Below, piece after piece: positions 21,483 to 38,386 of a stretch of 64,000 nucleotides of DNA. A program made the translations under genes and the position numbers. The notes beneath the pieces were generated by a model. The model ran no database searches and was not told the origin of the DNA. It worked only from the letters and a program-made list of their open reading frames with translations. The stretch's first letter is position 1. Each line of letters opens with the position of its first letter. Source of the stretch: Rhodocyclaceae bacterium (GTDB lineage Bacteria > Pseudomonadota > Gammaproteobacteria > Burkholderiales > Rhodocyclaceae); NCBI GenBank assembly GCA_018262775.1, contig JADFDU010000056.1, forward strand, positions 1 through 64,000, read 5' to 3'.

Positions 21483-22628
21483 ATGCGATATTCCCGTGTG
21501 CTGGGCTGTTTCGTGACGGCTGCGTGCCTGGCGTTTCCCGCCTGGGGCGAGCAGCAGTTCGAAACCCTGTCGGTTGCCAGATTACCGGCGCCGAACGCGC
21601 ATCGTATCTATCTGTCGGACATTACCATCACCCATATCGTCGACAACCGCTTGCATGTCATCGACGGCGACAGCTTCAAGTACCTCGGCGTGATCTCCAC
21701 CGGCTATGCCGGCCAGTCGACCCTTTCACGCGACCGCAAGGAACTTTATGTCGCCACCACTTACTACACGCGCCTGTCGCACGGGGAGCGCACCGATGTG
21801 GTGGAGGTCCATGATCCGCTGACACTCGAGCGTCGTGCTGAAATCGTCATTCCGCCGCGTCGCGCCCAGGCGCTGCCCTACCAAGGCATCATCCGCACAT
21901 CGAACGATGGCCGCTGGCTCTTCGTACAAAACGCCACACCCGCCACCTCCGTCACCGTCGTTGATCTGAAGGCGCGCCGCTTCGCAGCCGAGATTCCCAA
22001 CCCGGGCTGCTGGATCATCATTCCCTCAGAGACGGCTGCCAACCGCTTCTCGACGTTGTGCGGAGACGGCACCTTGCAGACCATGGTGCTCAACGAGGAC
22101 GGCAGTCTCAAATCGAAAACCAGGAGCGCGCGCTTCTTCAACCCCGATGAGGACCCGGTCTTTGTGCAGGCTGAGCACATCGGCGACCGGCACTATCTGG
22201 TGTCGTTCAGGGGCATGGTTCATGAGGCAGACCTGTCCGGGGAAACACCCATGCTGGAGGCGCCGTGGAGTCTTATCGGCAAGGGTGATGCGAAGAGTGG
22301 CTGGCGTCCGGGCGGCTACCAGCTGTTCACTATCCATCACAGCAGCGGCCGCATGTTTATTGCCATGCACAAGCATGGCGCCGAAGGCACGCACAAGAAT
22401 CCGGCCGATGAAATCTGGGTGGTCGACCTCGCGGGGCACAAACGCGTCGGACGCCTGCCCGGAAACGGTGCCGTGGCGCTGGCCGTCAGTCAGACGCCAT
22501 CGCCGAAGTTGTTTGCCCTGGATGGCGTGAAGATGGGCATTGCCTCGTTCGATGCCGGCCCCAAGCCGCGTTTCCTCAAGCGCATGGAGCAGGCCGCCGA
22601 ATCCGCCACGCAACTGGAACTGCACTGA
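21483..22628 (+). CDS. aauB: Aromatic amine dehydrogenase large (beta-propeller) subunit
   Basis: Signal peptide plus propeller sequence; first in a B-E-D-A gene order with a TTQ light chain. Start 21483. Confidence 0.85.
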   Translation: MRYSRVLGCFVTAACLAFPAWGEQQFETLSVARLPAPNAHRIYLSDITITHIVDNRLHVIDGDSFKYLGVISTGYAGQSTLSRDRKELYVATTYYTRLSHGERTDVVEVHDPLTLERRAEIVIPPRRAQALPYQGIIRTSNDGRWLFVQNATPATSVTVVDLKARRFAAEIPNPGCWIIIPSETAANRFSTLCGDGTLQTMVLNEDGSLKSKTRSARFFNPDEDPVFVQAEHIGDRHYLVSFRGMVHEADLSGETPMLEAPWSLIGKGDAKSGWRPGGYQLFTIHHSSGRMFIAMHKHGAEGTHKNPADEIWVVDLAGHKRVGRLPGNGAVALAVSQTPSPKLFALDGVKMGIASFDAGPKPRFLKRMEQAAESATQLELH

Positions 22629-23176
22629 TGGTGCTGCCAGCATCGCTAGACCCGACCCTGCCGCACATGTGCGCTGCTGCGCTCGCCATCATTTTCATTG
22701 GTGGTGCCTGGCACAAACTGAGTGATCGCGATGCCTTCGCCATGGCGGTTGAGCAGTATCGACTGGTGCCCGAATCCTGGTCGGGGGCGATTGCCTGGGG
22801 CTTGCCGTTGTGGGAACTGGCCGCGGGCGGCCTGCTGCTCGTCACGGCGGCGCGGGAGTGGGGCGCGTTGCTGGCCCTGGCCTTGCTGCTGGCGGTGACA
22901 GCGGCGGTGGTGGCGAATCTCCTGCGCGGGCGGTCGCACATCGATTGCGGTTGCGGCGGCCCGGAGGGTGGGCAGCATCTTTCCTGGGGGCTGGTGGCGC
23001 GCAACCTGTTGCTCGCCGTCATGACCTGGGCGGCAGTGGCAATGGAAACCTCGCGCCAGCTGGTCTGGCTGGATGGCCTGACCGTTGCAGCCGGTACGCT
23101 GGGGCTGTATGGCTTGTATGCGGCGGCCAACCAATTGATGGCCAACCACCCGCGGCTGATGAAACTGAGGAGTTGA
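22628..23176 (+). CDS. mauE: MauE/DoxX-like membrane protein, amine dehydrogenase maturation
   Basis: Membrane protein with FIGGAWHKLSDRDAFAMAVEQYRLVP and IDCGCGG; between large subunit and MauD. Confidence 0.85.
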   Translation: MVLPASLDPTLPHMCAAALAIIFIGGAWHKLSDRDAFAMAVEQYRLVPESWSGAIAWGLPLWELAAGGLLLVTAAREWGALLALALLLAVTAAVVANLLRGRSHIDCGCGGPEGGQHLSWGLVARNLLLAVMTWAAVAMETSRQLVWLDGLTVAAGTLGLYGLYAAANQLMANHPRLMKLRS

Positions 23177-36074: not shown

Positions 36075-38386
36075 TCGACAGCGCCTTCGTCAACCTCTGG
36101 AACCGTCTTGTGATGGACCGCCGCAACTGGTGGCTGCCGCTGCTGGTGGTGCTGGCGATTGGTTTGGGCAGCATGCTATTCGTCGGCACGCGCACCTACC
36201 AGGACGCCCCGCCGATCCCGGAGTTCGTTGCCGAATCCGGCGAGACGGTGGTCTCGGCGGCCGCCATCACGCGCGGCCAGATCGTATTCCTCAAATACGG
36301 CCTGATGAACTACGGCTCCATGTTCGGCGACGGCGCCGGCCGCGGGCCGGACTTCACCGCCGATGCCCTGCATGCCATGGCGCTCGCGATGCGCGATTTC
36401 CATGCTTCGCGCGAAGGCGTCGATGCAGCCGGCGCGCAGGCCCGCGCCCAGGCCGAGATCCGCCACAACCGCTACGATCCTGCCAGCAACCGCACGACGT
36501 TGGGCGAGGCCCAGGCCTACGCCGCGCGCGAACTGGGGCGCCGCACTGCCGCCATGTTCCGCGGTGAGGGCACCGAAGCCTTCCATCCGGTCGGCTACAT
36601 CACCGATGCGGCGGAACTGCGCGATCTGGCCGCCTTCTTCTTCTGGGGCGGCTGGGTGTGCGGCGCAGCGCGCCCCGGTCAGGACTACAGCTACACGCAC
36701 AACTGGCCCTACGACGAACTGGCCGGCAACCGTCCCAGCGCGCCGGTCATGCTGTGGAGCGTGGCCGCCGCCCTCGGCCTGATCGCTGTGCTCGGCGTGG
36801 TGCTGTTCCTCTACGGCCGCTATAGCAGTCTGGCCAGCTGGCGCCAGGCCGGCGACGCGGCGCGCCTGGCCACCCTGACACGCATCGAGACCTTCGGTCC
36901 GACACCGCTGCAGCGCGCCACCTACAAGTTCTTCGCCGCCGCGGCCCTGCTCTTCGTGCTGCAGATCATCGCCGGCGTGCTCACCATCCACGACTTCCTG
37001 CGCTTGACCCACTTCATGGGCATCGACCTGGCCGAGGCGCTGCCCATCACCATCGTGCGCGCCTGGCACCTGCAACTGGCCCTGATGTGGATCTCCGCCT
37101 GCTGGGTCGGCGCTTCGGTGTTCGTCCTGTCCGCCGCCCAGCGCGAAACGCCGCAGGGCTTGTTCGGCGAACTGAACCTGCTGTTCGGACTGTTCGTCGT
37201 CTGGGTGGCAGGCAGCCTCGTCGGCATTGCGCTCGGCAGCAAGGGGCTGCTGGGTGAGCACTGGAATCTGCTCGGCAATCAGGGCTGGGAGTTCGTCGAG
37301 ATGGGCAAGCTGTGGCAGGGCGTGCTGTTTCTCGTCTTCGCCCTGTGGCTGCGCATCGTCGCGCGCCTGGTGCGCACGGTCTGGCACGAGGGCGATGCGT
37401 GGACCCTGCCGAAGTGGCTGCTGTACGCCGTCGCCTGCGTCCTGCTGCTTTTTATTTCCGGCTTTGTCGCCCGGCCGGAAACCAATTTCGTTATCGCCGA
37501 CTTCTGGCGCTGGGCGGTGATCCACATGTGGGTGGAAGCCTTCTTCGAGGTGTTCACCACAGCGCTACTGGCCTACTTCATGTTCCTCATGGGCTTCGTC
37601 AGCCACGCTGCTGCTTCGCGCATCGTCTATCTGGCCACGCTGCTGTTCCTCGGCTCCGGCCTGCTCGGCATCTCGCATAATTTCTACTGGAACGCCAAGC
37701 CCGAGGCAACCCTGGCCATCGGCAGCATCTTTTCGACCCTGCAAGTGGTACCACTGATCCTGCTCACCCTGGAAGCCTGGCAATTCCGCAATACGCCACA
37801 GCGGGCCCTGGAGGGTGCCGGCGGACGCGCCGCCTTCGGCCAGGCCGAAGCCTTCCTGTTCCTGATCGGCGTGAACTTCTGGAACTTCTTCGGCGCCGGG
37901 GTGTTCGGCTTCATCATCAATCTGCCGATCGTCAATTACTACGAGCACGGCACCTATCTGACGGTCAACCACGGCCATGCGGCACTCATGGGCGTCTATG
38001 GCAATCTGGCCATCGCCGCCGTGCTCTTCTGCAGCCGCTACCTGATCGCGGCGCAGGCCTGGGACGCGCGCCTGCTGCGCCGCATCTTCTGGGCGCTCAA
38101 CCTCGGCCTGATGCTGATGGTGGCGATCGACCTGTTCCCGGTCGGCATCGCCCAACTTAACGAAGTGCTCGCCCACGGCCTGTGGCAGGCCCGCTCGCAA
38201 TCATTCGTGCAGGGAGACCTCTTTCAGACCCTTACCTGGGCACGCATCATCGGCGGCGCACTCTTCGTCATGGGCGGCGTCCTGCCCCTGGCGTGGTTCA
38301 TGGCCACGCGCGCCTTGGCCCTCAAGCACGCTGGATCCGGCGTGCCTGCAGTCCTTGCCGGCGAGCCGGTCCAGGCACCGGAGTAG
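36071..38386 (+). CDS. norZ: Quinol-dependent nitric oxide reductase, single subunit (qNor)
   Basis: 771 aa, ~14 TM; N-terminal qNor extension (FLKYGLMNYGSMFGDGAGRGPDFTADALH), NorB-like core with VNHGHAALMGVYGNLA; ATGA overlap with the MauG-like gene. Confidence 0.9.
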   Translation: MIDSAFVNLWNRLVMDRRNWWLPLLVVLAIGLGSMLFVGTRTYQDAPPIPEFVAESGETVVSAAAITRGQIVFLKYGLMNYGSMFGDGAGRGPDFTADALHAMALAMRDFHASREGVDAAGAQARAQAEIRHNRYDPASNRTTLGEAQAYAARELGRRTAAMFRGEGTEAFHPVGYITDAAELRDLAAFFFWGGWVCGAARPGQDYSYTHNWPYDELAGNRPSAPVMLWSVAAALGLIAVLGVVLFLYGRYSSLASWRQAGDAARLATLTRIETFGPTPLQRATYKFFAAAALLFVLQIIAGVLTIHDFLRLTHFMGIDLAEALPITIVRAWHLQLALMWISACWVGASVFVLSAAQRETPQGLFGELNLLFGLFVVWVAGSLVGIALGSKGLLGEHWNLLGNQGWEFVEMGKLWQGVLFLVFALWLRIVARLVRTVWHEGDAWTLPKWLLYAVACVLLLFISGFVARPETNFVIADFWRWAVIHMWVEAFFEVFTTALLAYFMFLMGFVSHAAASRIVYLATLLFLGSGLLGISHNFYWNAKPEATLAIGSIFSTLQVVPLILLTLEAWQFRNTPQRALEGAGGRAAFGQAEAFLFLIGVNFWNFFGAGVFGFIINLPIVNYYEHGTYLTVNHGHAALMGVYGNLAIAAVLFCSRYLIAAQAWDARLLRRIFWALNLGLMLMVAIDLFPVGIAQLNEVLAHGLWQARSQSFVQGDLFQTLTWARIIGGALFVMGGVLPLAWFMATRALALKHAGSGVPAVLAGEPVQAPE

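What the first reader, a model, noticed from the sequence alone, without database searches (positions are those of the whole stretch)
21483..38386. A ~17 kb co-directional block linking aromatic amine dehydrogenase to NO reductase
Seen: fourteen consecutive + strand genes with mostly short gaps or overlaps: amine dehydrogenase B-E-D-A, cytochrome c, DUF1329, DUF1302, RND/MMPL, TerB, YCF48-like, aldehyde dehydrogenase, cytochrome c, two MauG/CcP-like proteins, qNor. Known: TTQ amine dehydrogenases release aldehydes and pass electrons to periplasmic carriers; qNor takes electrons from quinol. Inference: a periplasmic amine oxidation pathway with envelope machinery, aldehyde detoxification and a nitric-oxide/peroxide arm, in an organism that also carries nap and nos. 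I do not recall this whole block being described as one system.
Basis: partly seen in the sequence, partly recalled or inferred. Interest (0 to 1): 0.8.

Follow-up and report, generated by a model that had tools for sequence, protein, structure and literature searches.

The report
Amine-oxidation operon ending in oxygen-making enzyme
A long run of bacterial genes for oxidising aromatic amines ends in a gene that by its signature residues is a putative nitric-oxide dismutase (thought to make oxygen in the dark) rather than the nitric-oxide reductase first assumed, and the same gene order recurs in other bacteria, which gives a testable idea of what that oxygen is used for.

Summary
The co-directional block is real, but its last gene is misread. 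The "qNor" (36071-38386) has the published nitric-oxide-dismutase (NOD) signature: FeB-ligand His to Asn537, catalytic Glu to Gln558, quinol site lost (R311, G729). All 120 nearest homologues share Asn and Gln.

The block is conserved end to end (divergent AraC, aauBEDA, DUF1329-DUF1302-RND-TerB-YCF48, cytochrome c, two diheme proteins, NOD) in six other named betaproteobacterial MAGs, with an ALDH in the same slot in four.

The amine dehydrogenase is aromatic-type. The diheme proteins score best against MauG, below its cut-off, and are the only MauG-family proteins found in this genome. NOD-linked amine dehydrogenases fall in at least three places on the AauB tree. Of 17 related NOD genomes, 15 carry a TTQ amine dehydrogenase, against 24 of 400 order-mates.

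Prior art: a June 2026 paper noted nod, two peroxidases and "mauABED" together in Burkholderiales and left the use of the O2 open. My preferred but unproven mechanism: NOD-derived oxidant lets the MauG-like pair build the TTQ cofactor under denitrifying conditions. Non-Tyr ligands and unlinked copies argue against it.

The parts
13867..15228 (-). APC-family amine/amino-acid permease (left arm)
   Evidence: NCBIfam transporter models, below cut-off; travels with the block in other genomes
15285..16874 (-). aldehyde dehydrogenase 2 (left arm)
   Evidence: co-conserved
16859..18292 (+). class III aminotransferase (left arm)
   Evidence: PF00202; NF005683 711 bits; co-conserved
18295..19566 (+). 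UPF0261 (Tm-1-like) protein, unknown function
   Evidence: PF06792/PF23189; co-conserved
19563..20225 (+). HAD-family hydrolase
   Evidence: co-conserved
20233..21249 (-). divergent AraC-family regulator, EutR-like, probable operon regulator
   Evidence: PF12833; EutR model 223 bits, below cut-off; same divergent position in 6 other genomes
21483..22628 (+). AauB, aromatic amine dehydrogenase large subunit
   Evidence: PF06433; best PDB match Alcaligenes faecalis AADH, E 4.6e-89, MADH 1.4e-37
22628..23176 (+). MauE-like maturation protein
   Evidence: PF07291
23181..23780 (+). MauD-like thiol-disulfide protein
   Evidence: TIGR02661 209 bits, over cut-off 188.6
23791..24318 (+). AauA, TTQ-bearing small subunit
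   Evidence: PF02975; AADH small subunit E 1.6e-54, TTQ Trp positions aligned
24315..24746 (+). small c-type cytochrome, probable electron acceptor of the dehydrogenase (start inferred)
   Evidence: PF00034
24794..26164 (+). DUF1329 / LolA-like periplasmic protein (AmeB-like)
   Evidence: PF07044 457 bits; AmeB described
26193..28040 (+). DUF1302 outer-membrane protein (AmeA-like)
   Evidence: PF06980 478 bits
28146..30506 (+). HAE3-family RND transporter (AmeD-like)
   Evidence: PF03176; TIGR00921 best NCBIfam model, below cut-off
30515..30997 (+). TerB-like protein
   Evidence: PF05099
30994..31953 (+). YCF48-like periplasmic propeller (AmeC-like)
   Evidence: PF14870
32007..33440 (+). aldehyde dehydrogenase
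   Evidence: PF00171 469 bits
33473..33823 (+). small monoheme c-type cytochrome (cytc2; CMGCH)
   Evidence: no Pfam hit; conserved at this position across loci
33820..34896 (+). CCP1, MauG/MbnH-like diheme protein; His305 at the MauG Tyr294 position (Tyr in many orthologues)
   Evidence: PF03150; TIGR03791 1.7e-46, below cut-off
34893..36074 (+). CCP2, MauG/MbnH-like diheme protein; Phe321 at the MauG Tyr294 position
   Evidence: PF03150; TIGR03791 1.4e-66, below cut-off
36071..38386 (+). putative nitric oxide dismutase (NOD), misread as qNor
   Evidence: N537, Q558, R311, G729; published NOD criteria; NOD tree

Best explanation
The block is one conserved gene cluster for periplasmic oxidation of aromatic amines in a denitrifier, ending in a putative nitric-oxide dismutase. 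Steps supported by sequence: an aromatic-type TTQ amine dehydrogenase (AauBA with MauE and MauD), an Ame-type envelope transporter, aldehyde dehydrogenases, two MauG/MbnH-like diheme proteins, and NOD. Inferred steps: nitrite respired by NirS gives NO; NOD turns NO into N2 and O2 at the membrane; this O2, or H2O2 made from it, lets the MauG-like pair complete the TTQ cofactor of the amine dehydrogenase without outside oxygen; the dehydrogenase then turns amines into aldehydes and passes electrons through the small cytochromes c; the aldehydes are oxidised further.
For: NOD residue signature and clade. End-to-end synteny in six other named MAGs. NOD-linked AADHs in at least three places on the AauB tree. 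15 of 17 related NOD genomes carry PF02975, against 24 of 400 order-mates; Fisher p about 3e-15, not corrected for kinship. In Sulfuritalea the same ALDH-cytc-CCP-CCP-NOD cassette (ALDH, CCPs and NOD 71-87% id; cytc2 51-55%) lies beside a different aau module (AauB, DUF1329 and DUF1302 about 41-51% id). Both diheme proteins score best against the MauG TTQ-biosynthesis model and are the only such proteins found in this genome. The diheme pair also accompanies the amine block in two genomes where NOD is not adjacent (G100, G008). TTQ formation inserts oxygen and uses MauG with H2O2. nirS-type genes, nap and nos are present.
Against: NOD has not been purified and results for it conflict (PMC13386854). 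Neither diheme protein reaches the MauG cut-off; CCP1 has His (Tyr in some orthologues) and CCP2 has Phe where MauG has its Tyr ligand. Most amine-dehydrogenase loci without NOD show no linked diheme protein, and G224 has none at all in the genome, so AADH can probably mature without one. The diheme pair occurs beside an arsenite-oxidase-like enzyme in genomes with no PF02975 match (G235, G084). Cofactor making needs very little O2. The genome also has the O2-dependent box pathway, another possible sink.
Confidence: 0.4

Rival explanations
1. NOD supplies O2 to catabolic oxygenases or oxidases, not to cofactor maturation: the amine-derived aromatic ring is opened by O2-dependent steps such as BoxAB, or the O2 is respired by aa3/cbb3-type oxidases.
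For: boxA and boxC are present (676 and 921 bits, over cut-off); several heme-copper oxidase genes. In Methylomirabilis, NOD genes sit near the methane monooxygenase genes (PMC13386854).
Against: box lies on another contig (C57); no oxygenase is in the block; no PaaA/PaaC-type ring epoxidase found; BcrAD/BadFG-family genes (possible anaerobic benzoyl-CoA reductase) are present.
Confidence: 0.25
2. NOD and the diheme pair are a stress module: NOD removes NO and the diheme proteins remove peroxide, protecting the periplasmic amine oxidation chain during denitrification.
For: Regulators of NO and oxidative stress (nsrR, oxyR) occur near nod in other lineages (PMC13386854). The diheme pair also occurs next to an arsenite-oxidase-like enzyme without amine dehydrogenase.
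Against: The regulator here is AraC/EutR-like, not NO- or peroxide-sensing. The diheme proteins score best against MauG/MbnH models, although their closest PDB matches are CcPs. The recurrent partner is specifically a TTQ amine dehydrogenase.
Confidence: 0.2
3. The protein is a divergent NO-handling enzyme of unknown chemistry (not a dismutase) that was recruited to the operon.
For: No biochemical proof of NOD activity. His328-equivalent H307 of the quinol site is kept.
Against: The substitutions that define putative NODs are all present and conserved in relatives, and it groups with Algoriphagus-type NODs, a lineage reported to carry nod.
Confidence: 0.12
4. The gene neighbourhood is hitch-hiking with no functional link between NOD and amine oxidation.
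For: aau plus the Ame module exist without NOD (L150, L153, L157, L158), and NOD exists without aau in most phyla.
Against: At least three separate placements on the AauB tree, two different aau modules next to the same NOD cassette, 15 of 17 co-occurrence, 4-bp gene overlaps.
Confidence: 0.03

Closest known systems
nod neighbourhood of Burkholderiales MAGs (PMC13386854, June 2026)
   Same: nod with two cytochrome c peroxidases and a mauABED cluster in Burkholderiales.
   Different: In the text read, it is called methylamine utilisation and the use of O2 is left open; no Ame module, left arm or MauG-likeness is mentioned. Here the enzyme is aromatic-type and the order is shown end to end.
Alcaligenes faecalis aromatic amine dehydrogenase (aauBEDA)
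   Same: Large and small subunits are the best PDB matches for AauB and AauA; B-E-D-A order as I recall it.
   Different: Its published cluster, as I recall it, has no NOD, transporter module or diheme pair (memory, not tested).
AmeABCD of Castellaniella defragrans (PMC6394551)
   Same: DUF1302, DUF1329, YCF48-like and HAE3 RND proteins in one cassette.
   Different: There linked to monoterpenes; here joined to an amine block, with TerB added.
NOD genes of Methylomirabilis (PMC3413370, PMC13386854)
   Same: His to Asn, Glu to Gln and quinol-site substitutions.
   Different: There near the methane monooxygenase genes; here near amine dehydrogenase and MauG-like proteins.
MauG / MbnH diheme enzymes
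   Same: Two CxxCH hemes, inter-heme Trp kept, best model TIGR03791 then MbnH.
   Different: Below cut-off; axial Tyr replaced by His (CCP1, Tyr in some orthologues) or Phe (CCP2); found here as a pair.

Membership tests
Nitric oxide dismutase (NOD) | One FeB-ligand His replaced by Asn | tested here: met
   H560 (Gs numbering) is N537; Asn in 120 of 120 close homologues
Nitric oxide dismutase (NOD) | Catalytic Glu replaced by Gln | tested here: met
   E581 is Q558; Gln in 120 of 120
Nitric oxide dismutase (NOD) | Quinol-binding site lost | tested here: met
   D746 is G729, E332 is R311; but H328 is kept as H307
Nitric oxide dismutase (NOD) | Groups with lineages reported to carry nod, apart from qNOR | tested here: met
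   One clade with Algoriphagus and Cecembia sequences, 100% SH-aLRT apart from two qNORs (nod reported in Algoriphagus)
Nitric oxide dismutase (NOD) | Makes O2 and N2 from NO | not testable with these tools
   Needs enzyme or membranes; not shown for any purified NOD
Quinol NO reductase (qNOR) | Three FeB His, catalytic Glu, quinol site | tested here: not met
TTQ aromatic amine dehydrogenase | Closer to AADH than MADH; TTQ Trp pair; MauE/MauD present | tested here: met
   AADH 1.6e-54 and 4.6e-89 vs best MADH 1.4e-44 and 1.4e-37; Trp positions aligned; MauE, MauD
TTQ aromatic amine dehydrogenase | Oxidises aromatic amines | not testable with these tools
   substrate not determined
MauG (TTQ biosynthesis enzyme) | Over the TIGR03791 cut-off (443.85 bits) | tested here: not met
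   CCP1 158.8, CCP2 224.7 bits; none of 32 genomes over the cut-off
MauG (TTQ biosynthesis enzyme) | Tyr axial ligand of the six-coordinate heme | tested here: not met
   His305 in CCP1 (Tyr in some orthologues), Phe321 in CCP2
MauG (TTQ biosynthesis enzyme) | Two CxxCH hemes and inter-heme Trp | tested here: met
   CASCH and CVQCH/CIRCH; W104 and W116
Classical bacterial CcP | Met ligand of the high-potential heme | tested here: inconclusive
   No Met at the position aligned to MauG Tyr294, but the CcP Met position itself was not mapped
AmeABCD transporter cassette | DUF1302, DUF1329, YCF48-like and HAE3 RND in one cassette | tested here: met
   order DUF1329-DUF1302-RND-TerB-YCF48
AmeABCD transporter cassette | Exports hydrophobic compounds | not testable with these tools
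   describes it for monoterpenes only

The most novel reading that the evidence does not exclude
An intra-aerobic cofactor-maturation operon: NO dismutase provides the oxidant with which a MauG-like pair builds tryptophan tryptophylquinone in an amine dehydrogenase under denitrifying, oxygen-free conditions.
Probability: 0.3. Interest if true: 0.85.

Novelty: new variant of a known kind. Interest (0 to 1): 0.62.

Why it matters
What NOD-made oxygen is used for outside methanotrophs is an open question stated in print (PMC13386854). Here NOD is in a chain of 4-bp overlaps with two MauG-like proteins and recurs next to a TTQ amine dehydrogenase, an enzyme whose cofactor needs oxygen to form. That makes one answer testable by gene deletions and 18O labelling. 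If true, dark oxygen would serve cofactor building, and enzymes thought to need air could be matured in anoxic, nitrate-rich habitats.

Tried and rejected
Structure models of CCP1 and CCP2 were low-confidence (mean pLDDT 61.9 and 57.0), so no fold search was run. A strict DNA pattern for NOD found only this genome among 400; it is too strict to be a census. A viral-contig scan gave nothing. Rfam and tRNA scans were empty. A gene-order reading as qNor respiration was rejected on residues. 'Methylamine dehydrogenase' was rejected: AADH matches are far stronger. Linkage of AADH and NOD in G012 and G014, and direct adjacency in G008, were looked for and not seen in the regions fetched. L003, the closest relative, could not be extended upstream. 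The whole genome was not available as a file.
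Full report
What is there. The window holds fifteen co-directional genes from 21483 to 38386 with gaps of -4 to about 105 bp. Pfam confirms the named families, with cytc2 the one gene without a Pfam hit. cytc2, CCP1, CCP2 and the last gene overlap by 4 bp each. No promoter-like site on the + strand was found in the block. nap and nos genes follow downstream.

The last gene is not a qNor. Against the Geobacillus qNor structure sequence (3ayf), FeB-ligand H560 is N537, catalytic E581 is Q558, quinol-site D746 is G729 and E332 is R311; H508, E512 and H559 are kept. 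Ettwig et al. 2012 (PMC3413370) give these kinds of change for putative NO dismutases: one FeB His to Asn, one catalytic Glu to Gln, quinol site lost. All 120 listed homologues, 58-100% identical, carry Asn and Gln, and 119 carry the Gly. In a tree of 81 sequences it lies in a betaproteobacterial clade within the NODs, apart from two real qNORs. One residue of the quinol site (H307) is kept, so the site is damaged rather than erased. That such proteins make O2 has not been shown with purified enzyme, and results in organisms conflict (PMC13386854).

The block is conserved. In six other named MAGs (L132, L133, L134, L135, L136, L138; Burkholderiaceae, Lautropia, Burkholderiales) the order divergent AraC, aauB, mauE, mauD, aauA, DUF1329, DUF1302, RND, TerB, YCF48, cytochrome c, CCP1, CCP2, NOD is kept on one strand; L132-L135 also have an ALDH in the same slot, 36-37% identical. 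A wider unit includes the permease, ALDH, aminotransferase, UPF0261 and HAD genes left of the AraC gene (13867-20225), which lie left of aau in G100, beside the AraC gene in Polaromonas, downstream of NOD in Burkholderiaceae and inside the G008 cluster.

The amine dehydrogenase. Both subunits match Alcaligenes faecalis aromatic amine dehydrogenase much better than methylamine dehydrogenase, so 'methylamine utilisation' is probably the wrong name. The substrate is not known.

Is the NOD link more than neighbourhood chance? On the AauB tree NOD-linked enzymes fall in at least three places (starred branches force three changes): window plus Burkholderiaceae, Sulfuritalea, and gammaproteobacterium L027. 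In Sulfuritalea the right half (ALDH-cytc2-CCP1-CCP2-NOD) is like the window's (ALDH, CCPs and NOD 71-87%; cytc2 51-55%), yet the adjacent aau module is a different one: AauB 47-51%, DUF1329 and DUF1302 41-46%, in opposite orientation. 15 of 17 related NOD genomes carry PF02975; 24 of 400 order-mates do; Fisher p is about 3e-15 without correction for kinship, and the two groups were drawn in different ways, so it is a rough guide. Among the 39 other NOD genomes searched (Bacteroidota, Planctomycetota and more) only two do. Twenty amine-dehydrogenase genomes had no NOD: matches were real qNORs (37% id) or cNorB-like (about 30%) (two qNORs and two cNorBs read at the motif).

The diheme pair. Both proteins have two CxxCH motifs and the inter-heme Trp, and their best NCBIfam model is MauG (TIGR03791), then MbnH, both below cut-off. 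In this genome they are the only proteins that match the MauG model (genome 91.8% complete). At the position aligned to MauG Tyr294, CCP1 has His (Tyr in several orthologues) and CCP2 Phe; that MauG's Y294H variant 3orv scores best for CCP1 fits this alignment, the variant's identity being from memory. The pair also accompanies the amine block where NOD is not adjacent (G100, G008), and occurs without PF02975 beside an arsenite-oxidase-like gene (G235, G084). So it is a modular unit, not exclusive to NOD.

Mechanism. TTQ formation needs oxygen insertion, and MauG works with H2O2. A denitrifier making the enzyme without air lacks that oxidant; a neighbouring NOD could supply it. This is inference. 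Rivals are given in their field: O2 for BoxAB or oxidases, NO and peroxide protection, or another chemistry. BcrAD/BadFG-family genes weaken the need for O2 in ring opening; the lack of linked diheme proteins in most NOD-free loci and the absence of any in G224 weaken the TTQ idea.

Prior art. [quoted passage not shown] What I add is the aromatic type, the full order with the transporter module and left arm, the MauG-likeness, the recurrence on the AauB tree, and the TTQ hypothesis. I read the main text only; its Fig. S3 was not available to me.

Noticed in passing
47739-63966: nap genes (napA, napG, napH, napB) and a nos cluster with NosD and a Sec-dependent (clade II type) NosZ gene or fragment near the window edge.
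   Followed up: partly
L003 and L012 (contig PQAF01000014.1): One Rhodocyclales MAG has two NOD genes about 45 kb apart; the second (L012) is divergent from an octaheme cytochrome gene and two tetraheme cytochromes.
   Followed up: partly
L190, L191, L163: The diheme pair sits next to an arsenite-oxidase-like molybdenum enzyme in three genomes; in two of them, with no PF02975 match, two-component regulator-like genes lie on the other side.
   Followed up: partly
G000:C52 (L184, L185): Four cytochrome-d1-domain genes (two look like nirS) and two odd COX1-type genes, one with only 50 bits, in the same region.
   Followed up: no
38435-41470: gmk and spoT/rel follow NOD closely (48 bp to gmk) here and in L003; perhaps just the integration point.
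   Followed up: no
L010:8791-9816: Where NOD stands apart from the amine block (Burkholderiales 70-64), it has a divergent AraC gene 50% identical to the block's regulator.
   Followed up: partly
A3, window residue 321 of CCP2: Phe at the MauG axial-Tyr position is kept in every amine-linked CCP2 compared, but is Tyr in the G084 (L191) copy, whose genome gave no PF02975 match.
   Followed up: partly
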